A stretch of 64,000 nucleotides of DNA, taken from contig NC_088790.1 of assembly GCF_949628265.1 (NCBI RefSeq), positions 21,890,545-21,954,544 on the forward strand, read 5' to 3'. Below, piece by piece: positions 9,691 through 49,104 of this stretch. How positions within the stretch are numbered: the first letter of the stretch is position 1; each line of letters opens with the position of its first letter. The notes beneath the pieces were generated by a model, which was not told the origin of the DNA, did not search any database, and worked only from the letters and a program-made list of their open reading frames with translations. Position numbers and translations under genes: made by a program. Source of the DNA: Cloeon dipterum (lineage: Eukaryota; Arthropoda; Insecta; Ephemeroptera; Baetidae).

Positions 9691-9701
9691 AACCATTATC
9701 A

Positions 9702-9890
9702 TTTGAGTGCTTTTTCTTGTATAAAAGCAAACGCAGAAGCAATTAAATACTGATGATAACTACTAAGAAAGTTGATGTCAGGTTGAATCAAAACTTTGTC
9801 TTCAAATTAAGCAAATTGCAATATTCCACACCAGCAAAAAGGTCAACATTGCATAAAAAGGCCATTGAGACATTGCAAGGATAAAGTTTA
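9702..9890 (+). promoter_or_regulatory. promoter of the decayed first secreted-peptide copy
   Basis: Three blocks match the promoter of the intact gene at 23812: TTTGAGTGCTTTTT (9702-9715), AAGTTGATGTCAGG (9769-9782, 127 bases before the ATG), and a TATA-like CATAAAAAG (9852-9860) about 31 bases before AAAGTTTAAC. A second TATAAAAG at 9720-9727 has no counterpart in the paralogue. The order and spacing of the blocks are seen directly. Promoter function is inferred from their conservation. Confidence 0.6.
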
Positions 9891-9908
9891 ACCCTGAACC
9901 TTGGCAAA

Positions 9909-10323
9909 ATGACACATATGGTGCTGTTCGTCGTACTTCTGACTTTTCTTGGATGCGAGACTTCCACATTTGTTGCAATTTAATTATTTCCTATAATATC
10001 ATCATTATTTAAACCATTGATTAAAATGCTGGTGGTAAAGCAGCAGTCATAGTTCCTCTTCTTCCACCTGATTTTCCACCCCAACCTCCTGAAATATGCG
10101 TCCTATACCACATATTTGAGTGTGCCAACTAAGCCTCTACATTCTGTACTAACATATATGATTTTAAAATCTATCAATTGTGAGAATTAATTGAAATTTC
10201 CAACTGATTAATTTGCTGAATAACATTAAAAACTGGTTCCATTGGCGAGCAGAACTTGCTCTCAATCATCTTCAAAACGCAGAGCCAAAAACTGTTGACG
10301 TAAACGATAATTTGAACAAGTAA
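9909..10323 (+). pseudogene. decayed secreted-peptide gene (copy 1 of the cluster)
   Basis: The leader begins MTHMVLFVVLLTFLGC, which is signal-peptide-like, and has the same promoter and start context as the intact copies at 10916 and 23812. A block at about 10028-10099 matches exon 2 of the 23812 gene and reads as a proline-rich peptide (PPDFPPQPP). A block at 10204-10323 matches exon 3 of the 10916 gene (LINLLN against LSNLQN) and ends in TAA. A matching 3' UTR follows to about 10355, with the polyadenylation signal changed to AATCAA. Three of the four expected splice sites are lost: donor 1 reads GA instead of GT, and both acceptors read AA instead of AG. As it stands, exon 1 runs into TAA after 24 residues. 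I call it a recent pseudogene, although the frames of all blocks remain open. Confidence 0.7.
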
Positions 10324-10776
10324 CATATCTCATTTTATGTTAGAAATCAATCAAAATGCAATTTTCAATCAATCCAATAAATTTAATAATGAGCTGACAG
10401 CAACATCTGTGTATTTTTTCAGCTAATAACTAGGGTTTAATTAATGTAGAGATTTTTATCAATTTTGTAAATCTTACTTTATATATTTTTGAAAACAGTT
10501 TATGTACTCCATAGACTGCATCACTAAATTCGAGTTGATATTTCAACTATTTAATTTAGATTTCCTTTATTCGGCAGTATCTCGGTAACACATCCAAGTG
10601 TGAAAAAAATACAACACTTTCATTGCTTTAAAAATGTAGAAGTAAAATATACTTTGACGTTTTCTCTTTTGCTCCAATTAATTATCTTCCACTTTATCTA
10701 CACGCCATATCATTTTCTGCTGCCTTTTTACGTGGTAGAAATAATTAAAAAAAAAACTGATAACTGTTCCCACGGC

Positions 10777-10900
10777 AAGTTGGTGTCACGCTGCATCGAA
10801 ACTACGCACAATTATGAACAAATCAAAAGAGTCCACGCCAGCGAACAGGACACGAAAGCATATAAATTGAGTTGAGAAATTATAAGGGAACAGTATAACA
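10777..10900 (+). promoter_or_regulatory. promoter of secreted-peptide gene 2
   Basis: AAGTTGGTGTCACG (10777-10790) corresponds to AAGTTGATGTCAGG of copies 1 and 3, at 126 bases before the ATG. It is preceded by ACTGATAACTG, as in the others. TATAAA (10861-10866) lies about 31 bases before the conserved ACAGTATAACACTGGCC, so transcription probably starts near 10891. That leaves a 5' UTR of only about 25 bases. The start site is inferred from core-promoter spacing. Confidence 0.65.
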
Positions 10901-10915
10901 CTGGCCATCGTCGAA

Positions 10916-11333
10916 ATGAGATTCCTTGTGTTATTCGCTGTGCTTCTGACAGTAGCGGTCTCCTTCGCGAGTAAGTCACATTTAATATGATTAAATAGTA
11001 TGAATTGTCTCATATATTTCATAGGTGCTGAAGAAGAAACTGCTGGGGGTGATGTGACTCCAGCGCCACAACCAGGAAATCCTATGTTACCTTCGAATAT
11101 CGTACTTAGATAAAATTGCAAGTTAAATTGGAAATTAATTTAAGAAATTTCAGCTCAGCAACCTGCAAAATTTGATGAATAAGATAAGGGAGACTTTGGG
11201 TCTCGCTAGATCCATTCCTGTCCTCAAGGAGGTTTCTAGGGGTGAAGCGTCAGAGAAGGAAGAACGGGAGAGATTTATGCAAAAGAAGAGGGAAAAAACT
11301 TCAACCAAAGCTCCTGTGACTCCTGCTGAATGA
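10916..11333 (+). CDS. secreted-peptide family gene 2 (103 aa, 3 exons)
   Basis: Exons are 10916-10970, 11025-11101 and 11154-11333. Both introns are GT-AG (54 and 52 bases), and the joined frame is open for 103 codons to TGA. Residues 1-18 (MRFLVLFAVLLTVAVSFA) are a typical signal peptide with a good cleavage site at SFA/SA, so the product should be secreted. Residues 19-44 are acidic, then rich in Pro and Gly. Residues 45-71 (from LSNLQNLMNKIRE) could form an amphipathic helix. Residues 72-103 are highly charged (EKEERERF, KKREK). There are no cysteines in the mature part. Exon sizes, intron phases (1, 0) and flanking sequences match gene 3 at 23812, so the two are paralogues even though the mature proteins barely align. 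I do not recognise a named family; function is unknown. The start is supported by the signal peptide and the conserved context before ATG. Confidence 0.85.
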
Positions 11334-11375
11334 GCCACGCGATTTGAGTGAACTACATTGTTCAATTCCTCCGGC

Positions 11376-11381
11376 AATAAA
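11376..11381 (+). terminator. polyadenylation signal of gene 2
   Basis: AATAAA lies 43 bases after the stop. The preceding 3' UTR (ATTTGAGTGAACTACATTG...) aligns with that of gene 3, which supports common descent. Confidence 0.75.
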
Positions 11382-11673
11382 TTGGGAACTTTAAAAATGC
11401 ATTTTACAATATATAGCACAATAGATTTAAAGAACAAAATTAAAAATACGTTTTGAACTCAGAAAAATGATTCAGAAAGAGACTTTTTAAAATTTTTTGT
11501 TGGTTATGCCTGTTTTGAGATAAGCGACTCCCTCGTGAAACTTCCAATAACATCACGAACGAATAACATGGGCACACAGGCCTCATTGAAAGGAGTCCAG
11601 TCCAGAAAACGCTACTGCCCCCACACCGAGGTCTTTTATTGAAATGCTAGACATTCGTTACGTGAAACAAAAC

Positions 11674-12013
11674 CAGCCCGTTGGCTCGCATTGTTGAGGC
11701 ATTCTCAAGTGTGCCAAAGAAATGGGAGACATTTGAGTAGTTCGGGGATCTGATCTGACACTGGCTGTCCAATGTCAGAGATGGCAAAAGGTGGTTCATT
11801 TAGTGACTCGAAATTGCTCAACGGGCTGGGAGGCGCACCGACGCCGACTCGCAACTTGCTGGTTTTCGCACCTTCAGGGACAAATGTCTGGCGTTTCAAT
11901 AAAAGACCTCGGTGCGGGGAGGCAAAAAAATGGCCACATTGGCTCCTCTGCGGCCACTCGGGTCCCTTATTGTCCGCTCGGCGGTGTTATTGGGACTCGA
12001 TAAGCTCATAGCC
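11674..12013 (+). repeat. dispersed repeat copy A with degraded ribonuclease-kappa-like exon
   Basis: This segment aligns along its whole length with the reverse complement of 22861-23229. Shared blocks include GTTGGCTCGCATTGTT, CCAATGTCAGAGATGGCAAAA, CACTTGCTGGTTTTCGCACC (with few differences) and the end TAAGCTCATAG. The part homologous to the candidate exon in copy B is frameshifted here, and its donor is changed from GTAAGC to ATAAGC. A short-frame peptide still reads LLCGHSGPLLSA. It is therefore a broken copy. Identity looks like roughly three quarters by eye. Confidence 0.7.
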
Positions 12014-12060
12014 CATGGTATGTGCTGAGGAGAGGTTCAAAATAATAAAAAATCAATCAC

Positions 12061-12226
12061 GCAAACCAGCAAGTGTCGAGTCGGAAAGCTTCCGCAATCC
12101 TTCCAAATCTGAATGAACTAGTCATTGCAAGGCAAGAATCAAATTTGGGCGCAAATCAACCCCAAACATCGCTCGGATTGTCACTTAGCAAGTGCATGCA
12201 TTCAACAATTGAAGCCAATGGCTTGG
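12061..12226 (-). repeat. dispersed repeat copy A', inverted next to copy A
   Basis: The reverse complement matches copy C at 32411-32620 in order: GGCT-CAATGTT-AATGCAT, AATCCGAGCGAT, TTGCAATGAC-AGT, CAGATTTGG-GGATTGCG, AAGCTTTCC-ACTCG, ACTTGCT-GTTT. It also shares its first and last blocks with copies A and B. It lies about 50 bases from copy A in the opposite orientation. Confidence 0.65.
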
Positions 12227-15200
12227 TTTTCAAATCATCTGTGACTGTCTTTAAAGTTCGAAGAAAAATATACTAACATTAAAAAATCTACTCATTCCGG
12301 GGTTTTGCCGCAATGGCCCGCAATACCTCTTTGAACTTTCATGTCTAGAAATGACATTATTTAAACAAAAGAAGAAACAAAATACATTACAAAGTGATTT
12401 GAAAAGCATTTTCTCTGTTCTCATCTACTGTTAAAAAGTAATTCCGCGAGAGCTACTAGTGTACCGAGAGTATAGAGAGCGATTTGCCCGCAGCAGCGGA
12501 ATAAAGTTGGCCGCTCTGGCTGGCTGGCTGCTTGGCGGCTTGATAGGAATTTCGCAGCTGCCACGAATATATCACTCAAGTGCGACAGCGCCCGTCTAAC
12601 CGGCAAGCACATTAGAATAAAAGTGCACGGACGCCGTTTTTCAAGCGCTCAGTCAGTCAAGGAAGGAGCGAGGTGCCCTCTGGGCTCGCTCCTCGCAAGA
12701 CGAGTGCCATCCTTCATTTCGCGTCCGCTGCTGACCCAATTATCCGCATAAACAGCGCTGTTCATCACGTCAAACGGCTTCACGGAAAGGGAAATTTTTC
12801 AATAAATTGGAAGATTGAGCTATTTAGAGATTTTTCAAACATGATTCTTTGGAAGGTCAAATTTAATAATGGCCTACATTTTATGCAATGCGTTCATTGC
12901 GTGACCTAAAAAGATAAAATCGATAGTGCCTTCTTCTGTGGTTACAGTTTACTTAAATCAACCATTTTAAATCTAAGTGTTCAATTTTGTAGCAAATAAT
13001 TGTAAAATTAAGCTGCGGAGATAATAAAATTGCCTAGCACTAGAGTTTAAAACTACATATAGATATATCAACACTGGTCCTAGTTCGATGAATCTCAAAA
13101 TATTCAACCTTTTAAGGACTGAGGATAAATTCCAACTTTAGACCGACAGTTTAATTACAAGGAAAAACGATTTTTTGATAATATCCATTCTGTTAAAATA
13201 CAAAAGAAATAAAGGGATTTGAATCCCCAAAAACCATACTATCAACTTTAGATGCATATATCTCAGTCACAAATAAAAATGAGAAAACTTTTGAACTGTA
13301 TTTTGTAATTTTTTATTTTATGATTGTTATGTTAACATTATTTATTGTTAGTTGGACAATAAATTTAGTCCTTTGATTTGAAACAGCTTTGAAAAAATCG
13401 CCCTATTAATACGAATTTTGACATTGATTAAATTATTTTCAGGTTTTTTTTTACTAATCTTGAAGCCACAAGATGATCGATATCGAATTTAGAAAATATT
13501 GTTTTCCTCATCAATTATTTCCAATTCTATTATTTTATACAAACTTTTATTACTTTTAAGTTGATTAGAGCATTGTGGCCCTTGATAAATCATGAGTATC
13601 AGCCTCAGGTTAGGTCAGACCACCGAATTCTACAAATTAAAATGTTTTAAAAGATATTCCATTTTCAATCAGACCTATTTGGTGCCATCTGCATTTTTAT
13701 TTTTATCTCTTTTAATACCTAATGAAATTTATAGCACGCCACAAACCTCTATTTTCTCATTTTGTGTCAATAAAAAAATGTAATGATGGACGGTTTGTTT
13801 TTTATATCAACCTTATTTCTACGCTTTTCACTGCCTTTTGTGCCTGAAACTCACTATAAATTGTCAAAATGAAAACTCCGTTTTGCTGAAATCATGTCGT
13901 GAGAGTGTTTCCATTCGGAGAGGAGGCAGTTTTAATTTGGCCCGAGGCGAGAAGTGAGATGAGACGCGCGACCAGCGGAACAAAGGGCGACCTCTCCGGC
14001 ACGGCACCGGCTGAAGCGGCCAGAGGAGCAGACAGTCAGTGTGCCGAGTGATGGAATGAATGAATAAGAGGCATCCGCAGCGGGGTTGGAGGTGAAAGTT
14101 AATTAGCTGATTCCGCCGCAAGTCGGGTGCAAATCCAATCAGAACCCTCTTCAACAAGACGAGCTGCCGACTGACTGCTGACTGACTGACGCAGCTCTCG
14201 AGGATTTGTCCACCCTGCAAATTTAATTTCCACCCCTGCACGCGCACTGAGAAAAGCTGTGGAGTTCGCCTAACCAGTGCGTTTGCTGAGTTTGTTCCGA
14301 CGTAACGACTTATACGTGACAAAAGTTGAAATTTTTGTTCAAAGGCAGGTTGGAAAGAATGAAATTGTGTATGACAATTTTACTTCCTTCTTGATGCATT
14401 AACTAAGACAGCCGAGAATATTCAAGATAATAAAAGGGACAAAAGCAAAAATTTGTAATTTTAAAACAAAAAATGTCGTTGGATTATAGACTTTAAATTG
14501 CTTCAGGGACTTTTATGAAAGATTTTCATACATTTTTAAATATGCATACTACTTTTTTTTAGATATATGATGATTGATTGGTACTAAAATGATGATTTAT
14601 CTCGGTGTATAGTGATAACTTAAATTTCTGAATTTCTAAAAAATTGTCGTATTATATGTTTGTTTACTCTCACCATAAAAAATGTACATACATGTTAAAA
14701 AACAGTTTGTAAAAAATTAAAAAAATTAAAAAGCACATAAATTATTATGTACAAATAATAAAAATTGCAAATAAATTTAAAATAATTTTAAGGTCTCTTC
14801 CAATTCCTTAAAATTTAATTTGAAACGCTCAGAAGAGGGGTGTGAAGTTTGAATGCGATCTATCAATTTTTCTGAGCTCTCAATGCACTATGGAACACAA
14901 AAATAGGCATAAATCAAGCAATTTCAGCCATTTGAAGCCTACCTCTTTTCACGTTCTTGCCCAACAATAAAAAATTACCCTAACGTAAGAATATGTTTTG
15001 GTAAATTTTTCTAATTAATACATACAATAATTTTGGGGGGAAATGTTTTTAGTCACTCTAAATCATAATGGTAATTTTGAACAAATTTTCAGTACTCGCT
15101 AAAAATTCAAGTAATATATTTTAGAAATTTACAAATGTAATATTTTAATATTTTTGGTATTTTCATGTCGTGTTTGTCAATATAATGAATTCATCTACAG

Positions 15201-17607
15201 TCAAAAACACCCTTTAAAATTCCGAATCTTAAAACATGCTAATTATTTTTTTGAACCGCTCCCCTACCACCAAGATGCAACTCGTGCAAAGTAAGAAAAT
15301 ATTGATCCAGAGAGTAATCGTCTGCGGGTATTAAAAGTGACACTCTCGGAATGAGCACAAAAAGTGGTGGAGCACCTGTTTGCTGAGGCAACTATGCAAC
15401 CTGTGGTTCACGAATGCTTCGCCAGTTGCATAAGCGCTAAATATCAGGCGGACGGACAACAGGCTATCCAGTGCAATCAATCAGGCCTGGTAGGTCGTCG
15501 AGCGGCATCCACCCCCCGTGCTGGAACGGGGTGGCAGCCTTAATCTGGTTACGCGGCGCGGGCAAAGACACCGGCGGCCGCATTTGGGCCACGACGCTAA
15601 ATTATTCACACCTCAATCAGGCGGCACGGCGAATTATTAATTTAAAAAGGGTGACTCCGGGAGCACTCGAGATGAGAGAGCGGCTAAATTGAATGCATTT
15701 CGTCTGCCGTGTGGGAACGAATGAACGAACGAGCCGGCAGCGGAGGGCTGGCTGGCTGGTGTCTTTCTAATCAAAAAACAGCAGGCAGATCTCTCGCTCT
15801 CTTCTCATACACTCCTCTGCTCTGCCTTCTCTTGATTCGCCCCGGAAAATGGATTTGCTGATTGAAAAATCATCTTTTACATCTGCGGCCCTCTCGATGA
15901 TGACGATAAGAGAGTGCGAATTTGACGTGCGAGATAATGCCGCTGATTAAATTAGTTCTGGCGCGGAAAGCGGCTGGATTTGCTCCGCTCAAAGAGGGAA
16001 AAACCAGCGCAGCAGCGGCTTTTTGCAGTGCACAGCGTCGCAGGCGGCTGCGTTTAATGAAAAAGGTCGCCCGCCGTTCAATTCGTGCCTCTCTGATTCT
16101 CAGAGGGGATTCGCAACACGAGATTGCTGCCTGAACAGCGCGTGCAAGGTTGAGCGGAAGGAAGGCAGGTGCTTTTCATGGAGCCGTTTTTTTCGAATTT
16201 GCCATCAGGAAATTTGAAGTTAATTATTAGACTTTGGCAATTGCATCGGCTGCGAAAAGAAAGAACGTAAAAAGGGTGAAACTGTTTAATTAAGAACCGA
16301 GAGTTAAAACTGATCGATGTTTCATATCCTTGATTTGATAAAATTTTAATATAATATAATCGGAAAACTGGCAACGATAAAATTTTCCAGGCTGAAAGAA
16401 AATTCAATTTAATGATGGCGTTTTCTTGAGTTGATGTTTACAGCGTTTATTGAAATCCAATAAAAAGGTATAGGTAAAAATTCATTGCAATATTTTTTAA
16501 GATTTATAAAAATCCCCTATATTCAAATAAATCTGGAGATTCCTTTGGGCAATTCGTTTCTAACTTTCAAGATTGCAATAAGTTGCGAGTTGAAAGTATC
16601 AACTGAAAATTGATATTTTTAATGACCTTGTAAATTAGATTTATTCATGAAAAATTCTCGGAAGCCTATCCAGAATTTTGGTAAAAGTGTTTAAATTTTT
16701 TACCTCTGCCGCGAACAAGGACATTTGCATCGCAATTTTATTTAAGTTTTTAAATTTTTCGACAGCCACACAAGAAACCCCTCTCTACTCTCCCAATTTT
16801 CGAAATTCTAGCGAGTTATGCCGTTTTACAGTGTTCAGTGTCTTGAGAAAATCTGGTGGGCACATTTTTAATAAATCTCATTTGGTTTGTTTCAGGAACT
16901 GGCCCTCCATAAATTCATGCTCATCAATCTTATCATTAATATTTTTCCACTGAGCTATGCCAATTTCTACAAAATTCTGTGCATTAAACCAGTTTTTGGC
17001 AAAGAGTGGAAAAAACTTTGTGTGTGCTTTACGCTGGATGCTAAAAGCTGTTTTGTTTTTGGAGTGAAGCTAATTGTTTTTGAAACGCACTCGATCCATA
17101 GTAAAATATAAAACAAATTAATACATTCCTTCAAACACGATGACAATAATTAATAAGCATAACATATTATTTTTGTACTTATTATTTAACAGTTATAGAT
17201 ATAGGCTCTGCATTTAAATAATACCGTCTACTATATTCAAGGAAAAATAACAGAGTATGTTGAACAATGCTTCTTGTAACTTTTTGGCTTCCAATATACC
17301 CTACAAAATCACGGTCAAAGATAAATGTAGCAGCAGTGGACTTTGCAGAGCTGGAAGGGGTGATTTCTCGGGCAAAGGGCGAAGTGAGCGCGCAAAACGA
17401 ATAATAAATGAATTTGATTGCGTTCTATAAATTACGCTGCGCACGGCTATGAGAAGAAAGAGCGTCGGAATGATTTGTGTTTGATTCATGGAGAGACGTG
17501 CTGTTTTGTGAATTTATGGCGGTGCTCGCTTAGTTAACAATAGAAGTGATAAATAATAAAATTACAATACGAGAACAACGAACGCGTCAGAGAGAGGAAT
17601 ATGGAGA

Positions 17608-17662
<55 letters not shown>

Positions 17663-18600
17663 TGTATTCGAGTATTTCATGTATTTTATTTCACATATTG
17701 GCCGGCGGCTGACGAGGAGAGCGCTGCGGCTGTTGTTTTATGGCCGACGCACTCTGTAATTAGTGGATCATAATTTTTCGGAGGGGTTTGAAGCGCTCAC
17801 TCACTCACACACCGGTCGTATATCAGCACACCTAATAAAGCCGCAGATAGATCATTCCCACTGATTTGTTCATTTATTTTTTATTGCCAATGATGTGCGC
17901 TGGCTGGAAATTAGTTTCCGTCGCTGCTCGAAATTAAAATGCCGTACTCAGCGCTCTGCTATATTTTTATTGCTTTTTTTTCGCTTTCCGATTGTTGGCT
18001 ATACTTCTGCTTTATGGCCAATATAATTACGGAGTGCGGCTGCGTCTGCCATGACGAGGAGCTCTTGAAAGACTGCCGGGCTGTAATTTTCTTTTAAATT
18101 AGCTCTAATATATGTAATTCTATGACTCAATTTGTCAGCACCATGGTGATATTTTATTTTGCTAGAGTATAATGGTAACCAAGAATTTTGTGAAATATTA
18201 AAAAAATTTAAAAGGCATGAATTTTGTATTAATTGAATTACATAAAACATTTTTATTGTAATCAATAAGGTGTATTATATTCATTTGATAATAAATTTGC
18301 AAAGAGCGCTTTATATTATGTAGTTGTTTAATATAAACATATGAAATTTTTTCATGTATCATAAGCATTGTATAGCAATTCGCACCTTTGTTGAAAAGGC
18401 ACTTTTTTCACTTTATCAACCTCTTAATTTCATTAATCGTAATTATGAATTTACATTATAGGACAAACAAATAGGTGTTAAATTAAACTATTCGCATTTT
18501 GTTAGACTTTAAAACTATTCTTAGGTTTAATAATGCAACAGTGATATGAAATTGAACTGAAATAGGGGAGCTGGAGGGGAGAGGTTGATGAATTATGTGA
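12227..18600. other. non-coding stretch with GC-rich islands, no gene seen
   Basis: GC-rich islands lie at about 12420-12780, 13860-14330, 15280-16180, 17300-17560 and 17700-17960, with AT-rich DNA between them. Homeodomain-type TTTATGGC motifs recur at 17513-17520, 17737-17744 and 18011-18018. A pure GA microsatellite lies at 17614-17660. The longest open frame (13864-14322, minus strand) has no coding character. I see no splice-linked exons. Confidence 0.45.
17614..17660. repeat. (GA)n microsatellite
   Basis: An uninterrupted GA dinucleotide run of 47 bases, preceded by imperfect GA sequence from about 17590. Confidence 0.95.
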
Positions 18601-18699
18601 TTTCCCGCCTTTTTGTTTCAGAGAGCCACCATACTTCCAATTTGACAGTGACACATACAATAACAATCATTAATTTCCTTTCCAGCGCTCCATTCTGTC

Positions 18700-19014
18700 A
18701 TGGATTTCAACGAGAATGAGGAAGAAGCTTTCCAAGAACCTCAGGACGCGGTTTTACCTGAGGATGAGAGTCAAGACCAGGAAGTGGACAACGCGCAGAT
18801 CAGTCTGGAGATCAGCACCGCGCTGGCCGGGGTGCTCAGATTGAGCCACGACCCCAAGTTCCAGCAGCACTGCTACAGCCTGCTGGGCGTCCGCGGAGCC
18901 AGCGAAGCGCAGATCGTGATGCAAGGTTTGCTGGACAAGATGATGGCTGACATCGATGAGGAAAATGAGCAGAAGAAAAGCCAAAATGATTCCAATGTAC
19001 AGCAGGAGAATTAG
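18700..19014 (+). CDS. orphan 104-aa acidic protein, single coding exon
   Basis: The frame runs from MDFNENEEEAF to TAG. Residues 1-32 are very acidic. Residues 33-90 (QISLEISTALAGVLRL, then SEAQIVMQGLLDKMMADI) read as helical, soluble protein, and the tail is Glu/Gln/Lys/Asn-rich. There is no signal peptide or membrane segment, so it is probably intracellular. The middle of the frame strongly prefers C or G at third positions, unlike its AT-rich surroundings and unlike the secreted-peptide genes. This is the main evidence that it is coding. Possible splice acceptors lie just upstream (TTTCCAG ending at 18685), so a 5' exon, coding or not, is possible. I do not recognise the family. It could be a lineage-specific gene, a retrocopy, or the last exon of something longer. 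Confidence 0.6.
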   Translation: MDFNENEEEAFQEPQDAVLPEDESQDQEVDNAQISLEISTALAGVLRLSHDPKFQQHCYSLLGVRGASEAQIVMQGLLDKMMADIDEENEQKKSQNDSNVQQEN

Positions 19015-19018
19015 CAGA

Positions 19019-19024
19019 AATAAA
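19019..19024 (+). terminator. polyadenylation signal of the 104-aa gene
   Basis: AATAAA begins five bases after the TAG stop, which gives a very short 3' UTR. Confidence 0.6.
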
Positions 19025-19040
19025 GTTAGATTTGTGTGAA

Positions 19041-20980
19041 ACTCATAAAACAAGTTTTAATCATTCTTGGAAACCCACAATTATAAGAATACTTTGAGGT
19101 GTAAAGAAATTTTTAGCAGTTTTCAGAAAATACAAGATTCTTCGCATTTTTCATTTAAAGCGTCAATAACGGCAGTTTCTTAAACTAAAACTGCGGTTAA
19201 TTTATGTATTTTATTTAAAATTTCAATCTCGTTCTGCTGTTTCAAATTTTCATTAGCGCCGTATCGATGCATGAAAGCCAGTTACAAATATGAATCGCTT
19301 AACTTTTTTCCAGCCAAAAACTCGAATTTAGTAACCTCTTTTAGTGGTAAATTTACACAAAAGCCGGTGCAGTCTCTATCTTCCATCATTATCGTGATTA
19401 AATAAAAATACGATTTAAACAATTTCCAAGAGGATAAAAAAACTCCTTTGAAATTATAGCTGGTTGACAACACCAAATTAATTCATTTTTCATGTGGTGC
19501 TCTAGCTTTAAATATTTAAAAAGTGCACGAATTCAATCAATTCCCCACCAACCTGAAAAGAGCATCATGAGAATAATTTAACTTTTACCTACTATACATT
19601 TTATTAGCAAAATTAATGAATTTCCAGCTAAGTAAACGCATTTAATGTATTAAAAAATTATCACAACACTGAGCCCTTCCAACGCGAAGAAAAAATTGAA
19701 AAGATAAAATAATAATCACAGCCTTTCTGGTTTTGCAATTTGATGTATATTGTTCAGTTTAAACTTTAGACACCATTTCCGCATTTTTTAATCAAATTAA
19801 CACCCTTGCTTCTTTGATGTTAAACATTTCCTGCAGTGCTTTGAGAATAATCGACTTAAATTCCTGCAATTTGCAATAATTCTCAAAACACGGTCGCAGT
19901 AGGAAAAGGCGACCTTTTCATTAAAGAAACGAGCGGCGAGCATTTAAGCAGAAGCACGTCAAATAAAAGTAGATAAGGGACGGAGAGCGAGTGAAAAAGT
20001 GGCTCTTCCGCTGCGGGAAAACAAGAAGGGCGGAGGCACAATATCGGCGGCGGTGGCGGCGGGCGGCTCCTTTATTGAGTTAATTTCGTAACAATATCCG
20101 ACTTTAATCTAGTGTAAGAATACACATGCGGCGCACGAGGCAGAGAGAAAGCGGCCGGGGGATGCGGAGAGCCGAGAGCGAGCGCTTGTCACTATCTCCT
20201 CCCTGCCTCTACTTGACGACGACGACACAAACTCGAATACAGACGGTGGAATTATGAAAATGAGACAAACACCACCCGAGTCGAAAAAGATTGGCCTTTC
20301 TGCGGCACGCCGGCACTCTGCGCGCTCGGCCTCGCAGACTGAAGCGCTTCACTCAAGCTGCGCCGCCGCCGCCGCCACCGGCTCCTGCGCTGCGCTTCCA
20401 TATCTGTTTGTTCCGCATAGACACAAACTGACGATATTTTACATTGAAATTGTAAGATATTGCAGCTATTGTGCGCCTCCACAATAACCGCCTCTCGGAT
20501 ATTTACGATTAAACCTGCTCGAAATTTTAAGTCACGCGCGCGTCAGCCACGCAGCAGCCGCGCCACCCTCTTTTATGCCGGCTTTCTTTTGCCCCGGCAG
20601 GCTTTCACCCGAATCTGAGCGAAAAGGGAAGTAAAGTGCACCGGTTGTTACGTCAAAGGGGTGTGACGCACACACCGCCGATGAAAAATAATAAGAGCAG
20701 AAATCAAAAGAGGAATAATTCAAAACAAAAGGAAATTGCATCCACATAATATTTGGCTTATAAATTTACTATCGTTGCATTGAGTTTGTCTGCCCAAAAA
20801 TGCGTTTTTAAGTATAAGACTGGCATGAAATACACCAAGGATAGAGGGTTTTTAATTAGTGGGGCATAACTACGGACATTTTTTTTATCTCGAGGTTGTG
20901 AGGATTTTAAAACGATCTGTGCGTCTGTGATTTAATTTTTGGCACCAAATAAGCACAAATTATGCAATTTTAAGACTTAG
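19041..20980. other. non-coding stretch, one GC-rich island
   Basis: AT-rich to about 19880. A GC-rich island follows at 19900-20720, with GGCGGC runs, GAGAGC blocks and CTTTTATGCCGG near 20570. No coding frame is supported. The overlapping frames on both strands at 20252-20487 are low-complexity Ser/Arg/Ala reads of GC-rich DNA. Confidence 0.45.
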
Positions 20981-21278
20981 GTTAAAACGCTTTATTGGAT
21001 TTATTGGCTTTTAACGAAATGAACACGTAAATTATTCAAACAGATGAAAGACGAGTAATTTATTTTAATTTTTGTAATGTCTTTGGTACGGCTTCCCGAT
21101 TTTTCGCGACCATTTATTTTGTCGACCGATGCGTCAGATGTAAGCATATCGGGTGTGCTTACACAATTGTTTGATGATCATATGGAAATTACAAAAATTA
21201 AAATAAATTACTCGTCTGTTTGAATAATGTAATTGTTCATTTCGTCAAGAGCCAATAAATCAAATACGTTATAAGGGG
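20981..21278. mobile_element. fold-back MITE-like element
   Basis: The left arm (20981-21078) and right arm (21188-21278) are long imperfect inverted repeats. Both contain CGAAATGAACA, ATTATTCAAACAGA and ACGAGTAATTTATTTTAATT in one orientation or the other. The 109-base centre includes a perfect small stem TGTAAGCA...TGCTTACA (21139-21146 with 21156-21163). There is no coding capacity. AGACTTAG occurs at 20973-20980 and again at 21303-21310, but the second lies about 25 bases beyond the arm, so I do not claim it as a target-site duplication. Structure fits a non-autonomous fold-back or MITE; the superfamily is not identified. Confidence 0.75.
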
Positions 21279-22138
21279 CTAAAAATATAAAATTTAATAT
21301 TGAGACTTAGCAACAAAAAACTGTTTAAAAAACTGCTAAAAATCTTTTAAATCTCCTGTGAAGCTTGATATCCCCCACAAAACCAACGCAAAAATGGTCT
21401 AAGTTTTAGTGAATTTCAGATTTTTCTTCAAAAATGTCTTTTCATTAAATTATGTTGCTTTTTGAACCCTAGCTGGCTCTAGGAATATAAAATAGTAAAT
21501 TTGATTTTAAGGTTTCGAAGTTTTAGCCTTGTTTTCAATTTAAAAACATATTTGGACGACACAGGAGATAAAAACGCTGTGTCGAGTAACGCAAATAAAA
21601 TACAACTCCATTATAAATATGAAATCATTACGAAATTGGGCATCAAATACTAATTTTCCTACCGTTTTGTTTAGTCGTATTTCAACAGTGCTTTGTTTCG
21701 TAATTGGAAAAATAGATGATTCAGCCATGTTTTACCAATAAATTTTGTTTGTTACTGAAAAGGCTTCACTGTATTAATTTTGTTGATTATGCTGAACCTG
21801 AAAAAACGCCTAGATATATCCAAAATTGCAGTTTTTCCTCAAATAATTCATATTCACATTATTTTAGAGCAAATTTCCCTTTTGCAATCCTGCGCATCAA
21901 AAAACGAAAAATTCCTCCAAAAACGAACACATCTACAACAGGTCATTTATAAAATTCTTTACCACTTTGTCAATATTTGCACAAATTTATATCACATCCA
22001 AATTTCCCCATGAAACTGATCATCGTCATTTTAAGGCCTAAACAAGCAAAGGGCTAAAATCTGGCATAAATTTCGACGGCAGGGAATATGAAAGGCACCC
22101 TGCGCAGCTCTTTTTTATTGTGTTTCGCAAGAGTAACA

Positions 22139-22164
22139 TGTGTGTGTGTGTGTGTGTGTGTGTG
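22139..22164. repeat. (TG)13 microsatellite
   Basis: Thirteen perfect TG units. Confidence 0.95.
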
Positions 22165-22414
22165 CAAGACCCTCTCTTCTCTGTTTGAGACAATAAGAAA
22201 GAGCTTTTCATGTCCCATTGTATGAAGATTTTCTGCCGGCTGCTGCTCGCCACGGAGAGACGACGTCGACGCGACAGCGAAAAAGCAGCGCAAAAATGCA
22301 AATTAACATAAAATTTGAATTTGAGCTCATTCAAAAACGTGTTTAAATTGTTTTAATCCAGTCATAAATTTTAGCGGGAATTATCTCTAAAGCTCTTTCT
22401 CCGGCGACAGAGAG

Positions 22415-22418
<4 letters not shown>

Positions 22419-22490
<72 letters not shown>
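22419..22490. repeat. (GA)36 microsatellite
   Basis: A 72-base perfect GA run, the longest simple repeat in the window. It is followed by a GC-rich island. Confidence 0.95.
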
Positions 22491-22492
<2 letters not shown>

Positions 22493-22860
22493 CTGTCGCT
22501 CCGCCTCCTCCACTCGTCTTCCGAGGTTCAGCTTCCAAATACTCCGCATCTCTGCTTGACACTGAATGGGAAATGGAAAAAAGTTAATACATTCTATTAT
22601 TTATCTTTTTGCAAGCAAATTGGATTTTTTAACCTCTTGGTAGACTTTTCTAACGCGATTTAACCACTGATCTTTATTATTGTCTTGCTTATTTGTTTGC
22701 TTTTGTCTTTGAAACTTTGAGCGCGCGTGTGCGTTTACTTTTCAAAGACAAAATCAAATAATTAAGAAAGACAATAAAGATCTGCGGGTAAATTATGGTC
22801 CTTTCACCTATATCAAGAAAAAAAAGTAAGCAAATTACAAATAAGCATAATCCTGTGTGG

Positions 22861-23229
22861 ACTATGAGCTTACCGGGTCCCAATAACACAGCCCGCCAAG
22901 CGGACAACATGGGGCCCGAGAGGCCGCAGAGCTTGGGCGCAATGAGGCCATCTTTTCGCCTCCTTGCACTGATATCTTTTACTGAAACGGCAGACATTTT
23001 GTTACTGAAGCCGCTGGAAAGGTGCGAAAACCAGCAAGTGGCGAGTTTTGATGTCGTTGCGTCCCCCAGCTAGTTGAACTATTTGAGCATTTGAGTCACT
23101 TCACAAACCACCTCTTTTGCCATCTATGACATTGGATAGTCAGTAAATTAGATGCTCGAAATGCTCAAATAAATCCCACTTTCTTCGACACAGCGAAGAA
23201 TGCATTAACAATGCGAGCCAACGGACCGG
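22861..23229 (-). repeat. dispersed repeat copy B
   Basis: On the minus strand this aligns end to end with copy A (11674-12013). It starts at CCGTTGGCTCGCATTGTT (near 23229) and ends at GTAAGCTCATAGT (22861). It lies just upstream of secreted-peptide gene 3, in opposite orientation to copy A, which lies just downstream of gene 2. It contains the exon-like relic at 22874-22997. Confidence 0.7.
22874..22997 (-). pseudogene. first-exon relic resembling ribonuclease kappa
   Basis: On the minus strand an ATG at 22997 opens a 41-codon frame that stops exactly at a GTAAGC splice donor (intron would begin at 22873). The frame contains APKLCGLSGPMLSAWRAVLL. This recalls the start of ribonuclease kappa proteins, where a CGPKL block is followed by a hydrophobic LSAWG-type first membrane segment. 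There are differences: one extra residue, Pro inside the membrane stretch, and Arg where Gly is expected after the Trp. No second exon is visible in the following sequence. Copy A carries the same segment broken by a frameshift and a lost donor. I infer a duplicated 5' gene fragment. The family match rests on about 20 residues and is uncertain. Confidence 0.35.
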
Positions 23230-23609
23230 TTAATATTAATATTTATTTGTAGATTACAGACTATTTAAAAAAAATGCTGTCCTAGTCGTCAATTTTGAAA
23301 GTTTTTCGGTAAAATACTTTCTGATTCAATTTGTTCTAGTATGACGGACAAACTCAAATACTCTTTGGTAAATAAAATAAAGGTACATTTTCTAAACTTA
23401 ATATCAATATTCAATATTTTCTTTTATTAATTTTAATTAGTCAAAAAAGAGCCGAGGCAGTTCTTAACTTTTTCCCGTCCAAATTAAAAAAAAAAACAGT
23501 TTAGAAGCAATCAAACACAGTTTCTTATAAATATATTTAACTTGAAAATTGATTTGAAACTGTTCTCTCGCGCTTCAACTACATTTTTAATTTATTTCTT
23601 ATCATATCA

Positions 23610-23790
23610 TTTGAGTGCTTTTTGCTGTCTCTCTGCATGCAGAAACAATTATAACCGATAATAACTCGCTCGGGAAGTTGATGTCAGGATAAATTCAGCA
23701 ATGAGAACGTTTTCTTGACGTGTTTCCACGCCACCAAATGGGGACAGTATGTAGTTTAAATAGACCCTCGAAACAGCGGAGGGAAACAGT
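23610..23790 (+). promoter_or_regulatory. promoter of secreted-peptide gene 3
   Basis: TTTGAGTGCTTTTT (23610-23623), CCGATAATAACT, and AAGTTGATGTCAGG (23675-23688, 124 bases before ATG) match copy 1 almost base for base. TTTAAATA (23755-23762) lies about 31 bases before ACAGTTTAACACTGGCC, the likely initiator. The predicted 5' UTR is about 24 bases. Confidence 0.65.
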
Positions 23791-23811
23791 TTAACACTGG
23801 CCCTCGGTAAA

Positions 23812-24258
23812 ATGAGACCCATTCTGTTGATTGTCTTCTTTTTTACTTTCAAGGCCTGCTTTACGAGTAAGACTTTTTTAGTTAGTAAGAGCTAATTATT
23901 TGATGCAATATGAGCTTCCTAGGTGCTGAAGGAGCTGAAGGTAAAATGGGGAAGCAGCAGGCACCATTTCAATACCTTATTCCTGTACCATGGCGTCAAC
24001 CTCGACCAATTCCTCGACCTACACGTCGTCCACCTCAACCACTTCGACCGATTGCGCTGGGTCCATATCTTATCGTACTGACTTTATTTTTAAATCATAA
24101 TGTGTAATGCATTTTAAAATTTTCTGCAGACTGAATTCTTGGCTGACAGTAAAATTCTGACCAACAATTTAAAAGAGAGCACCCAAAGCGCTAAACAGGG
24201 ATCTGAATATGTTCCGGATTTGAGCGCAGTTAAAACTCCGAAAAGGGTAGTTGTTTGA
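23812..24258 (+). CDS. secreted Pro/Arg-rich peptide gene 3 (111 aa, 3 exons), antimicrobial-like
   Basis: Exons are 23812-23866, 23923-24074 and 24130-24258. The GT-AG introns (56 and 55 bases) have phases 1 and 0. Residues 1-18 (MRPILLIVFFFTFKACFT) form the signal peptide. Residues 39-66 hold 11 prolines and 6 arginines around one Trp, with RQPRPIPRPTRRPPQP at 43-58 and then LRPI. This PRP/RPI pattern is typical of insect proline-rich antimicrobial peptides such as drosocin, pyrrhocoricin and abaecin, which enter bacteria and target the ribosome or chaperones. Exon 3 (residues 70-111) is a polar tail that might be a propeptide; KR sits near the C-terminus. The antimicrobial role is inferred from composition only, as there is no direct alignment to a named family. 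Exon structure, promoter and 3' UTR make it a paralogue of gene 2 and of the decayed copy. Other possibilities are a seminal, salivary or cuticle-associated proline-rich peptide. Confidence 0.88.
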
Positions 24259-24337
24259 AACCTCTATAAGAAAAGGACACCTCCAAGGCAGTCGGAAGAG
24301 TAATTTGAGCAAACGTCATTGTTCATTTCATGTTGGA

Positions 24338-24343
24338 AATAAA
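24338..24343 (+). terminator. polyadenylation signal of gene 3
   Basis: AATAAA lies 80 bases after the stop, inside a 3' UTR that aligns with those of copies 1 and 2. Confidence 0.7.
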
Positions 24344-24349
24344 TCCTAG

Positions 24350-25330
24350 ATATCAGAAAAAATATTTTTTATTTGTGGGCTCTGCTAAGAGTCAGCCTGA
24401 CATATTTTGAAACAAAGTTTGTTAAAAGCAGAAACGTTTTGTTAAAAATTTACCCTCTCAGCTTCTTCTAGCGATAATTTACGATTTTTTATTTGCGTAT
24501 GGCGTATGTCAATATTCCAATCTTTATCTCTTTTGGCTGGAAATAAATTAAATAGTGAATTTCATTTTGTGCAGTTTTCTTCTTTGCTTGTGTTTGTGTG
24601 AGGCAAAATGTTTCATAAACTAAATTATTCTAATGCAACGTTCACGATGAAGTGAATGGTTTGCTCCTGTCAGAAAAACTGAGTGAGTTTCTCCTTAGTT
24701 TAAAATTTTATACCTTTATCCAGCCTCCCATGCCAGCAGGGTTGAGTTTACAATTAGCTTGGTGGCAAAATAAACTATTGTTTAACTTTGTTTGAAACTC
24801 GTTTTGTACGTTCTTTTTAAAGCGCAAACTTTTCTGAAATATTTTAAAAATTATATGCATGAGTTAATCCATTGCTGACGAGAAGAAAAGACAAAATATT
24901 CATCATAGGAGCACAAATGCTTTTAAATACAAAAATATGTGTATTAATTATGCCGCAGTTACAATCTTAAAAAGATTAATCAATAGCATTAGGACATATA
25001 GTAATATGAATTGTGAATTATGCCACACGAAACAATAAAACTCGATTTCGATTGTTCATGAGTGAATAAGAATTTAAATTTTCTGTCTATGATATCCGCT
25101 TTCTTGATGTTAGTTAAGTGGACTGTACAATGCGAGTTGGGGGCTTGCAAAAGTTGTGCAGTTGGTGTGAAAATATTATATGTAGCACAAATTAATTTGT
25201 TTGTCGTCGACGAAATAGAAGGCAAAGTTTTCTGGGGTTTCAAGCATGTGGAGAATATTTTTTTATATTTTTCTACGCTCTCATTTGATTGCCTTGAGTG
25301 ATAATGACGTGTACGCAAAGTTTTCAACTT
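24350..25330. other. AT-rich spacer between genes 3 and 4, no gene supported
   Basis: This spacer of about 1 kb could hide a badly decayed family member, but I find none of the shared promoter blocks or splice pairs. The frames at 24989-25378 (minus) and 25062-25301 (plus) lack a matching promoter or exon structure. Confidence 0.4.
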
Positions 25331-25336
25331 TTTATT

Positions 25337-25410
25337 ACTGATAACCGTAGCTCTTTTGAGGGGGAGAAATAAGTTCAAAAATTTTAGTCAGCACTATATG
25401 GGTTGCCATT
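25337..25410 (+). promoter_or_regulatory. putative promoter of gene 4
   Basis: ACTGATAACCG (25337-25347) resembles the ACTGATAACT block of genes 1-3. A possible initiator TTAGTCAGC lies near 25384. The AAGTTGATGTCAGG box is not recognisable, so this promoter has diverged. Confidence 0.35.
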
Positions 25411-25421
25411 CGGTCGTCACT

Positions 25422-25860
25422 ATGCGGTCCCTGTGCTTTTTACTCCTGGCCGTTGCGCTCGCCTGCATTTTCACCGGGACTGGTTGCAAATGTTTTATCC
25501 ATATTGGTAGATCATTTAACACTTAGCAAACTTTTTCAGAGGCAACTCAATTCCGAGGAATTGTTCCTGACAATTACGATGGACATTTACGGGTTTTCCG
25601 AGAGGTGAAAAATTACACAAATTTATTCCATCAGTTGTTGTATTTTGCATGAATTCCAGCGTCACAGAGATTTTGTTGCCACATTTGGACGACGGTTGAA
25701 CGGGCGTTCGGTGTCTGAAAAGTGTCCGTTCTTTGAGCGTCGTAGTCGAAGGGAAGAAACCTCAAGAGCCAACAACCGGACCAAAAACTGCATGTCCAAA
25801 GGAAAATACACTCGCGCACAGCAAACGAAAATGGCAATTATGCGATTGATGCATATATGA
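25422..25860 (+). CDS. secreted Arg-rich peptide gene 4 (108 aa, 3 exons)
   Basis: Exons are 25422-25482, 25540-25604 and 25660-25860. The introns (57 and 55 bases) have phases 1 and 0. Residues 1-20 (MRSLCFLLLAVALACIFTGT) are the signal peptide. Exon 2 (21-42) is EATQFRGIVPDNYDGHLRVFRE. That stretch is 22 residues, so read it as ending ...HLRVFRE. Exon 3 (43-108) is strongly basic, with 13 Arg and 5 Lys against 5 acidic residues, several RR pairs, and two cysteines (64 and 86) that could pair. The first donor (G/GTTGCA) is weak. I chose it because the alternative donor at 25507 would leave a 33-base intron, too short to splice. Retaining intron 1 would end the protein after 34 residues. The family link to genes 5 and 6 is the exon plan plus an exon 3 start of R-x-[RK]-[DE]-F in genes 4 and 5. 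Function is unknown; a cationic secreted effector is plausible. Confidence 0.75.
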
Positions 25861-25877
25861 TTGTGCTATTGGTTCGA

Positions 25878-25883
25878 AATAAA
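25878..25883 (+). terminator. polyadenylation signal of gene 4
   Basis: AATAAA lies 17 bases after the TGA stop. Confidence 0.7.
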
Positions 25884-26140
25884 TTGGTTTAATGAAACAA
25901 AGTTAAAATTATATTTTAATTAATACACTCAAATAATTGTTTAGGGATATCAGTAAACTTCACAATTTAAATTTGACAAAAAGTCGATCTTTCCGCAATT
26001 CCAAGTTATATGAAAATAAAAAAGATATATCAAATATGGACAATAAATGCTTTTTACCAAAGTCGTTTCTAACGAAACGCTCGTTATTATATTTTATTAT
26101 CAAAATTTCTTTGCTGACGTGCAAATTGTTATCTATTAGA

Positions 26141-26148
26141 TATAAAAG
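26141..26148 (+). promoter_or_regulatory. TATA box upstream of gene 5
   Basis: TATAAAAG lies 146 bases before the ATG of gene 5. Initiation would fall near 26172 if it is used, giving a longer 5' UTR than genes 2 and 3. Its use is not certain. Confidence 0.4.
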
Positions 26149-26286
26149 TAGGAACGTGACGCAAAAGGGACAGCGAGGCCGAAAAAAAATAAAACGACAA
26201 AGACTTCAGTGAGTGATAAAGAAATAACTCTACAGTCAGAGTACAAATTAAAATTCCTCGTAGTAGCGTGGAAGTCTAGCGACAAA

Positions 26287-26729
26287 ATGAGAACGGCTGC
26301 CACGATGCTCGCAATTTTTACTGTCCTCTTTGCACTGGCTTCAATAAGTAAGTTGGAAGCTTAAAAATTAAAAAAAAACTCTTCAAATTCGTTGATCATA
26401 GGCTGGGCTGTGGATCCAGAAAATGGTTATACACGAGCAAAAAAACTGACAGCGTTTCAACAGGTGATAAATTTTTGTGCAGCTAAATTTTCCTCTCTTT
26501 TATACTAAAGTTATTTAATTAACTATAATTATTTAAGCATTTTTCAATAGCTTAGAATGCAATTAATTTGTTCATTTTTTAGCGCCAAAAAGAATTCCAG
26601 GACCAAGTGAGTGTTATTGAGAGGAGAAGGGCACGGGGAGAAAAGATCACTTCATCTTCAAAACTGAAACCCAGAAATCAGGAGCCACGTAGGACGAAAT
26701 CAAGTTGGGTCTCAAGTCATCTCGATTAA
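26287..26729 (+). CDS. secreted Arg-rich peptide gene 5 (89 aa, 3 exons)
   Basis: Exons are 26287-26347, 26402-26463 and 26583-26729. The introns are 54 bases (donor GTAAGT, phase 1) and 119 bases (phase 0). Residues 1-20 (MRTAATMLAIFTVLFALASI) are the signal peptide, with cleavage near ALA/S or SWA/V. Exon 2 (21-41) runs SWAVDPENGYTRAKKL to TAFQQ. Exon 3 (42-89) starts RQKEFQDQ, which resembles RHRDF of gene 4, then has a basic ERRRARGEK block at 54-62 and a Ser/Arg-rich end. No cysteines remain after the signal peptide, so no disulfides are expected. The frame is open across both junctions to TAA. It lies about 400 bases downstream of gene 4 in the same orientation. Function is unknown. Confidence 0.85.
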
Positions 26730-26731
26730 GA

Positions 26732-26737
26732 AATAAA
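26732..26737 (+). terminator. polyadenylation signal of gene 5
   Basis: AATAAA lies two bases after the TAA. A second AATAAA at 26779-26784 is an alternative. Confidence 0.6.
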
Positions 26738-26784
26738 AATTTTAAATATTTGCTCCATCGATTGTTTTTTATCTTCGAATAAAA

Positions 26785-27340
26785 ATATTTACTCTACATG
26801 GATTCCTTCTTCACTTCAAACCTATACAAGTAATTTGGTTCAAGTTGACACTTTTGCATTGACTTTATTTTTATGGCAATACAAGATCATTTTAATTTTC
26901 GAAAAACTGTAAAATTCCGATATCAATTAACTCTCGAGTCTTGATCGTATTGCAATGGTGTATTTGACGAAATTTTGTAGACAAATAGGTTGACAAGTAA
27001 ATTAAATATCCTAAAAAAATGTTAAATTACAACAACAATAAATAATCACTAAATTTTTTGGAGGATCTCAAATATTGAGCTTTGGTTGACATCGAAACTA
27101 TTGTCGAGAATTAAAACGACGAATTGAATAGAACAACGAGGAAGAAGTCTGTTTTCATTAATTCCCGATATTGAGCTTTTATATTTAGTTAAATTTTAAA
27201 TACGTTATATTTTAAATGTGGGAAAGCATAAACATTTCCTCCTGCGACAGAATATTCTAGACCCATTAAAGAATATTTTGAAAAATTGTCAGTGTTCCGT
27301 GACAAAAATTATCAAAGCAATCACCTCACCCAATAGCGAG
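26785..27340. other. AT-rich spacer between genes 5 and 6
   Basis: I see no frame, promoter block or repeat that I can support. Confidence 0.5.
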
Positions 27341-27357
27341 CAAAGCGGAAACTGTTG

Positions 27358-27400
27358 ATAAAAAACTGACATTAAAAGAAAGTCTGTTAAAACAGTCGTT
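27358..27400 (+). promoter_or_regulatory. putative core promoter of gene 6
   Basis: GATAAAAAAC (27358-27367) lies about 31-33 bases before AACAGTCG (27391-27398). This copies the TATA/initiator spacing of genes 1-3 and leaves a 5' UTR of about 24 bases. Confidence 0.4.
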
Positions 27401-27416
27401 TGTCGCACCACTGAAA

Positions 27417-28098
27417 ATGCGGAGGTCACTCCTGTTTCTAAGCGTTGTCACCTTGTTCGTTTACTCAGCATGTAATGAATTGACATTTTTACGAAACATT
27501 ATTTACAACAGTTGCGTTTAATATTTCAGTCGCTGATGTACCCGATTACCACTCGTCTCATGCGGAGGTAAAAATCCCACTGAAAGGGAAATATTTTGAT
27601 TACACAATTTTTTTTTAGATTCAAAAACTCGCGAGAGACATTCTTCGTGATAGGATGAGAGGACGCCGCAACGGTGGTCAAATCTCTGGCAGATCCATAG
27701 ATGAAAATGACAAGTATATCTCTGAACTGTAAAAAATTCAGTGCAGACTTTATTCCTCACGTTTCAGAATTTCAGCTTTCTCTTCTGCGGCAGCTAAAGA
27801 AGCTTATAGAAAGAAAAAGGCCGAAGAGAGGGACAAATTGCTTGCTGAAATAGCTGCAGCGAACCAGGAAGCAGACAAGCTCGCTCAACAAGCGCATCAA
27901 AAAGACAAAGAACTAGAACAACTCTTGAGTTCACTGGCCAGTCAGCATTCTGGCCTATTTAACCCATTGGCACCCCAGCGACCTGAGAATAATGAAGTAG
28001 ATACTAATACAGACACTCAGGCAGGCAAAGCACCAGGAACAGACGATTCTGAAGAAGAATCAGAACAGAATGAGCCACAATCTGCAGATCCTGTATAG
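27417..28098 (+). CDS. secreted coiled-coil protein gene 6 (172 aa, 4 exons)
   Basis: Exons are 27417-27471, 27530-27567, 27619-27713 and 27768-28098. The introns are 58, 51 and 54 bases with phases 1, 0 and 2, and the frame is open to TAG. Residues 1-18 (MRRSLLFLSVVTLFVYSA) are the signal peptide. Exon 3 (32-62) is basic (RDRMRGRRNGG) and corresponds to exon 3 of genes 4 and 5. Exon 4 adds a long Ala/Glu/Lys/Leu helix (about residues 70-121, with AEERDKLLAEI and KDKELEQLLSSL), likely a coiled coil. An acidic, disordered tail follows (138-172, with DDSEEESEQNE). If intron 3 is retained, the protein ends six residues into it (KYISEL then TAA at 27730-27732), giving a short form of about 68 residues like its neighbours. 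The extra exon looks like a later addition. Function is unknown. Confidence 0.85.
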
Positions 28099-28192
28099 GG
28101 TTCTCAAATTAAGGAGATCGACACGTCAAATACCACCAGTAGACGTAGCATCTGTAATTCTTTCACGAATATTTGACGAAAATTCCATGTAA

Positions 28193-28198
28193 AATAAA
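28193..28198 (+). terminator. polyadenylation signal of gene 6
   Basis: AATAAA lies 94 bases after the TAG stop. Confidence 0.7.
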
Positions 28199-49024: not shown

Positions 49025-49027
49025 GCA

Positions 49028-49101: not shown

Positions 49102-49104
49102 AGT

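What the first reader, a model, noticed from the sequence alone, without database searches (positions are those of the whole stretch)
9702..28198. Tandem family of fast-evolving small secreted proteins
Five intact genes and one decayed copy, all on the + strand, share one gene plan: a signal-peptide exon of 55 or 61 bases, a phase-1 intron of 54-58 bases, a short exon 2, a phase-0 intron and a charged exon 3. The mature parts are almost unalignable between members. Conserved leaders and promoters with divergent mature peptides are typical of immune, seminal or salivary effectors. I recognise no named family, so this is the best candidate for an undescribed system here.
Basis: partly seen in the sequence, partly recalled or inferred. 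Interest (0 to 1): 0.85.

Follow-up and report, generated by a model that had tools for sequence, protein, structure and literature searches.

The report
Cluster of fast-changing secreted peptide genes
An insect chromosome carries a row of five small genes for secreted proteins, at least two of them (plus a dead copy) sharing a private on-switch while their protein parts have become unrecognisable, and one resembles an antibacterial peptide; the pattern is known from other insects, the genes are not.

Summary
Five intact gene models (g1-g5) and one relic (D) lie on the + strand at 9.7-28.1 kb. A scan for this gene plan finds four of the five in 184 kb, none on the other strand, none in 40 kb of control DNA and 2 in 40 one-strand shuffles. 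Only D, g1 and g2 clearly share promoter, leader and layout; a promoter pattern built from them matches exactly at three places in the 190-Mb genome. g3, g4 and g5 show no convincing similarity to them or each other, and g5 has four exons. All six carry GATA sites close upstream (14 against 3.7 expected), so shared regulation is plausible. g2 encodes a proline/arginine-rich stretch with two Pro-Arg-Pro motifs, like proline-rich antimicrobial peptides. Best reading: private extracellular effector genes, most likely host defence; tissue and function are not shown. Kept non-coding parts with divergent mature parts is a known pattern (Hessian fly SSSGP genes, PMC2955719). The species is not settled (mayfly or a fly).

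The parts
9697..9908 (+). Promoter and 5' leader of relic D, related to those of g1 and g2; holds one of the three genome-wide pattern matches (9756-9780)
   Evidence: (blastn E 5e-11 to g2, 3e-7 to g1 in 184 kb)
9909..10318 (+). D: decayed copy. Exon-like stretches align with g1 and g2, but splice sites are lost at homologous places and the exon-2 frame closes early
10760..10788 (+). g1 promoter pattern match
10916..11333 (+). g1: exons 10916-10970, 11025-11101, 11154-11333; 103 aa precursor, neutral mature part; end of exon 2 less sure (the scan chose 11053)
23661..23686 (+). g2 promoter pattern match
23812..24258 (+). g2: exons 23812-23866, 23923-24074, 24130-24258; 111 aa; Pro/Arg-rich stretch in exon 2 (12 Pro, 6 Arg, no acidic residue in 38 aa, two PRP)
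25422..25860 (+). g3: exons 25422-25482, 25540-25604, 25660-25860; 108 aa, strongly basic mature part with two Cys; first donor weak
26287..26729 (+). g4: exons 26287-26347, 26402-26463, 26583-26729; 89 aa, basic mature part
27417..28098 (+). g5: exons 27417-27471, 27530-27567, 27619-27713, 27768-28098; 172 aa, acidic, with a likely coiled-coil stretch (by eye)

Best explanation
The stretch holds at least five real, lineage-private genes for small secreted proteins in a gene-poor region beside a teashirt/tiptop-like gene. D, g1 and g2 descend from one ancestor by duplication: promoter, leader and exon layout are still recognisable while the exons for the mature protein have diverged beyond alignment, and D has since died. 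g3-g5 are neighbours of unproven kinship with the same gene plan and probably a related switch (GATA-factor sites close upstream). The products are most likely cleaved from their leader, secreted from a GATA-controlled tissue such as gut, fat body or salivary gland, and act outside the cell, most likely as host-defence peptides; g2 would work like a proline-rich antimicrobial peptide, entering bacteria and blocking the ribosome. Shown: gene models beyond chance, kinship of D/g1/g2, a promoter pattern found nowhere else, GATA enrichment, no relatives found in this genome or in Pfam. Inferred: expression, secretion, tissue, defence role, ribosome target.
For: Plan scan against shuffles and controls. 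Promoter kinship of D/g1/g2 and exactly three exact pattern matches genome-wide, 0 for the reversed control. Between g1 and g2 upstream, leader and introns agree in 52-58% of columns, exons 2 and 3 in 26% and 35%. GATA sites 14 against 3.7 in 250 bp, 0 of 1000 shuffles; for g3-g5 alone 7 against 2.0, 1 of 1000. g2 Pro/Arg-rich with two PRP, mature net charge +7; g3 +12 and g4 +8. A review reports no known antimicrobial peptide genes in the mayflies it looked at (PMC11011964, passages), which would leave room for private ones if this is a mayfly.
Against: No transcript evidence at all. None of three kappa-B patterns occurs upstream of any of the six, though almost none was expected by chance. 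g1 is neutral, g5 acidic and D's stretch has no Arg run, so the trio is not uniformly PrAMP-like. GATA enrichment is weaker with 400 bp (14 against 6.3, 5 of 1000; g3-g5 44 of 1000), and the 250-bp window was chosen after seeing the sites. Much of the low exon figure is gap columns (75 of 152 in exon 2); among aligned columns it is 51% and 44% against 58%. The 3' flanks agree in only 43% of columns and gave no significant pairwise score, apart from a local D-g2 match of E 0.03.
Confidence: 0.4

Rival explanations
1. Reproductive (seminal or ovarian) secreted proteins: same genes, expressed in accessory glands, diverging under sexual conflict.
For: Divergent mature parts with kept leader and promoter; gene death (D).
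Against: Nothing specific; the Pro/Arg-rich stretch of g2 and the basic g3/g4 fit defence at least as well.
Confidence: 0.22
2. Salivary, silk or glue-type structural or feeding secretions, comparable to Drosophila Sgs glue genes or Hessian fly SSSGP proteins.
For: Clustered small secreted genes with a first intron near the signal peptide (PMC6352337, passages; PMC2955719, abstract and one section); inverse conservation.
Against: No Thr/Ser repeats or glue motif seen in the five proteins (by eye). Published SSSGP 5'-UTR score averages are 84-94, not the same measure as my 52-58% but far more alike.
Confidence: 0.2
3. Three or more unrelated secreted genes that happen to sit together, with only D/g1/g2 a family; no common function.
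For: No convincing similarity of g3-g5 to the others: best protein pairs g3-g5 (14 of 500 shuffles) and g3-g4 (26 of 500) of 15 pairs, best upstream pair g1-g3 (5 of 200).
Against: Rare gene plan found four times within 16 kb and nowhere else in 184 kb; GATA enrichment in both groups.
Confidence: 0.35
4. Spurious models: non-coding DNA that looks spliced by chance.
For: Weak donors in g1, g2 and g3; no transcript data.
Against: 2 hits in 40 shuffles, 0 on the other strand; exon/intron GC contrast in five of five; poly-A signals in five of five.
Confidence: 0.1

Closest known systems
Hessian fly small secreted salivary gland protein (SSSGP) gene families (PMC2955719; abstract and one section read)
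   Same: Clustered small genes, conserved promoter, leader and intron, super-divergent mature part; first intron at or within the signal-peptide part.
   Different: No SSSGP sequence was compared here; conservation of non-coding parts looks much weaker in this cluster; two or three introns here; host and tissue unknown.
Proline-rich antimicrobial peptides of invertebrates (PMC11678341 and PMC11549390, passages)
   Same: g2: precursor with a leader, Pro 15% of the mature part and 32% of the 38-aa core, two Pro-Arg-Pro motifs, no acidic residue in the core.
   Different: Single copy, not a repeat polyprotein as in apidaecins; no sequence relationship found; activity and induction unknown.
Myticalins of mussels (PMC5577615, passages)
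   Same: Kept leader, hypervariable cationic Pro/Arg-rich part, gene family with pseudogenes.
   Different: There leader and mature peptide share one exon and an acidic C-terminal propeptide follows a dibasic site.
Drosophila salivary glue genes Sgs1/3/7/8 (PMC6352337 passages; PMC10835880 passages and abstract)
   Same: Small clustered secreted genes; short phase-1 intron (50-71 bases in Sgs1) near the signal peptide.
   Different: There the intron cuts the signal peptide at residue 10 and a C-terminal motif is shared; not so here.

Membership tests
Proline-rich antimicrobial peptide (g2 only) | High Pro content (14-49% in natural PrAMPs, PMC11678341) with Arg, often PRP motifs | tested here: met
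   14 Pro in 91 mature residues, 12 in the 38-aa core, two PRP
Proline-rich antimicrobial peptide (g2 only) | Sequence kinship with a named PrAMP family | tested here: not met
   Only PROL5-SMR, below its cut-off (17.1 against 25.3 bits), was listed by Pfam at E up to 10, a search whose filters drop most weak matches
Proline-rich antimicrobial peptide (g2 only) | Antibacterial activity, ribosome or chaperone target | not testable with these tools
   needs a synthetic peptide
SSSGP-like inverse conservation (D/g1/g2) | Non-coding parts and leader more alike than the mature coding part | tested here: met
   g1-g2: 52-58% against 26% and 35% identical columns, largely through gaps; 3' flank 43%. 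Same direction but less regular for pairs with D
SSSGP-like inverse conservation (D/g1/g2) | Salivary-gland expression | not testable with these tools
   no expression data
Drosophila Sgs glue family | Phase-1 intron at residue 10 and C-terminal IRXC[L/V]C motif (PMC10835880, passages) | tested here: not met
   intron after 18 or 20 whole codons; motif not seen in the five sequences (by eye)
One gene family g1-g5 | Shared ancestry seen in DNA or protein | tested here: inconclusive
   met for D/g1/g2 in DNA; for g3-g5 the best of many pairs are 14 of 500, 26 of 500 and 5 of 200 (g1-g3 upstream), not convincing

The most novel reading that the evidence does not exclude
If the genome is a mayfly's, an order reported to lack all known antimicrobial peptide genes, this is a private, GATA-controlled cluster of defence peptides in which a proline-rich antimicrobial peptide arose anew inside a leader-and-promoter scaffold whose other copies carry unrelated cargo.
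Probability: 0.13. Interest if true: 0.75.

Novelty: new member of a known kind. Interest (0 to 1): 0.42.

Why it matters
It is a small, clean case of secreted genes keeping their switch and address label while swapping their cargo. If the g2 product proves antibacterial and the animal is a mayfly, it would show what an order without known antimicrobial peptides uses instead, and give a new natural proline-rich peptide to test.

Tried and rejected
One family for all six: not accepted, for want of convincing similarity beyond gene plan and GATA sites. A 26-base, 81% match between D and g4 is the only direct repeat linking the groups in that list and may be chance. More members elsewhere: apart from the genes' own exons, the protein searches gave only weak matches (g1 E 0.6 and 0.7; g4 8.6; g5 3.6 and 4.0) or none (g3), at E up to 10; g2 was searched at E up to 0.001 only, none. 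Promoter DNA from g2 and from D found only each other; both missed g1, so that search is not very sensitive. IMG/VR was searched with g5 and g2 only, no relatives. Classical antimicrobial peptides in this genome: no defensin match over the cut-off, three weak ones below it, and no control genome over the cut-off either; the attacin search is uninformative because nothing rang in the controls.

Species: five contigs of 33-43 Mb, 190.1 Mb in all, no TTAGG array in the outermost 1 kb at 10 of 10 ends of those contigs. This fits Cloeon dipterum (2n = 10, 180 Mb, no TTAGG repeat found; passages of PMC6446309, PMC7250882, PMC8977481) but also a fly. COX1 gave one short match below the cut-off with stops. 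Four Cloeon papers were searched for primer letters in the main text, none there (PMC7250882, PMC11597413, PMC5479533, PMC11491810, passages). A paper search for the genome span found none. Literature: one search gave no paper; 10 of 19 and 12 of 19 papers were listed, and no title or abstract start seen described these genes; this is no proof of absence.
Full report
What was checked. The window is C5:21890545-21954544 of a held 190.1-Mb genome in 10 contigs. I rebuilt the gene models and corrected exon ends. g1 (10916-11333, 103 aa), g2 (23812-24258, 111 aa), g3 (25422-25860, 108 aa), g4 (26287-26729, 89 aa) and g5 (27417-28098, 172 aa) each start with a hydrophobic leader exon ended by a phase-1 intron of 54-58 bases. 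D (9909-10318) aligns with g1 and g2 but has lost splice sites and its exon-2 frame closes early (read).

Is it more than chance? A scan for the plan (leader, phase-1 intron of 48-70 bases, short exon, phase-0 intron, terminal exon, poly-A signal) over 184 kb gave 2, then 3, then 4 hits as splice cut-offs were loosened, every one of them in this cluster and none on the other strand. At the loosest setting four 10-kb control pieces gave none on either strand and 40 one-strand shuffles gave 2 hits in all. The last loosening was made because g2 was missed, so the figure flatters g2. g5 is outside the scan's plan. For g1 the scan chose another end of exon 2; the end given here is preferred because D, g1 and g2 share the same donor place in the alignment. 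Poly-A signals follow all five stops within 100 bases, and introns are poorer in GC than exons in all five.

Kinship. D, g1 and g2 share promoter and leader (blastn E 5e-11, 3e-7 and 6e-5 within 184 kb; local-alignment z 10.5-20.4). A pattern read from the three promoters matches exactly at three places in the genome, those three, and the reversed control at none; since the pattern was built from them, the informative part is the absence of others. Promoter DNA searches from g2 and D found only each other and missed g1. g3, g4 and g5 show nothing comparable: upstream the best pair is g1-g3 (5 of 200 shuffles reach the score), in protein g3-g5 (14 of 500) and g3-g4 (26 of 500) of 15 pairs. In the same protein test the true relatives g1 and g2 score no better than 115 of 500 shuffles, which shows how far the mature parts have gone. 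So the finding is one small family plus three neighbours of unproven kinship.

Divergence. In the three-way alignment g1 and g2 agree in 53% of columns upstream, 58% in the leader, 52% and 58% in the introns, 43% in the 3' flank, but 26% and 35% in exons 2 and 3. Much of that is length change: among aligned columns the exons reach 51% and 44%. Against D the contrast has the same direction but is less regular, as expected for a relic. In separate pairwise tests exon 3 of g1-g2 is no better than shuffled (z -0.4), and the 3' flanks are not significant either, except a local D-g2 match (E 0.03).

Regulation. WGATAR sites number 14 in the six 250-bp upstream regions against 3.7 in shuffles (0 of 1000 reach it); g3-g5 alone 7 against 2.0 (1 of 1000). 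With 400 bp: 14 against 6.3 (5 of 1000) and 7 against 3.4 (44 of 1000). The shorter window was chosen after the positions were known. Three kappa-B patterns are absent from all six, but their background is at most 0.03 per 400 bp.

Products. No Pfam family passes its cut-off for g1-g5; PDB searches of g1, g2, g3 and g5 gave nothing credible; g4 was not searched there. Net charges of the mature parts are 0, +7, +12, +8 and -9 (leader ends assumed by a simple rule). g2's 38-residue core has 12 Pro, 6 Arg, no acidic residue and two Pro-Arg-Pro motifs, inside the published range for proline-rich antimicrobial peptides (PMC11678341, passages). That is resemblance in make-up, not kinship. The coiled-coil remark on g5 is by eye.

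Setting. No other clear gene was recognised in the flanking 60 kb on either side except a C2H2 zinc-finger gene that I take for teashirt/tiptop (name recalled; Pfam shows only C2H2 fingers), 66603-69473 on the minus strand, just beyond the window's end, and a reverse-transcriptase-like frame; only a few frames were scanned against Pfam. The two gene groups are separated by 12.5 kb; near its two ends lies an inverted repeat pair, 11671-12015 and 22858-23231, 75% alike, which may have helped the duplication.

Species. Not settled. Five large contigs, total size and lack of TTAGG arrays at ten of ten ends fit the mayfly Cloeon dipterum (passages of PMC6446309, PMC7250882, PMC8977481) but also some flies. 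If it is a mayfly, a review's statement that Ephemeroptera (it names Baetis, Isonychia and Eurylophella) lack all known antimicrobial peptides (PMC11011964, passages) makes g2 worth testing. No defensin over its cut-off was found here, but the power of that search is unknown.

Verdict. Real, private, secreted-protein genes very likely; one family of three shown; shared plan and GATA sites in the rest; defence the most likely of several roles that sequence cannot separate. The kind of cluster is known; these genes, as far as the searches named here go, are not described.

Noticed in passing
window 18700-19014 (+): 104-codon open frame that resembles the C-terminal stretch of a GCN1-like gene at C4:22799443 (name recalled; 38% identity, E 0.03 genome-wide; E 4e-4 in 184 kb); perhaps a partial gene copy.
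   Followed up: partly
window 11671-12015 and 22858-23231: Inverted pair of a MITE-like repeat, 75% alike over 377 columns, some 340-380 bases beyond g1 and before g2's promoter; shorter copies in the flanks.
   Followed up: partly
66603-69473 (-), just beyond the window (L008:2606-5473): Large C2H2 zinc-finger open frame, teashirt/tiptop-like; the cluster lies on its 3' side, in gene-poor DNA.
   Followed up: partly
95163-96377 (-), beyond the window: 405-codon frame that looks like a LINE reverse transcriptase (by eye).
   Followed up: no
window 49027-49102 (-): tRNA-Ile (AAT), found by two programs.
   Followed up: no
window 20993-21266: Foldback-like stretch: inverted arms of 55 and 33 bases, 87% and 97% complementary.
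   Followed up: no
L049-L058 (outer 1 kb of C1-C5): None of ten ends of the large contigs carries a TTAGG array; several look repetitive.
   Followed up: no
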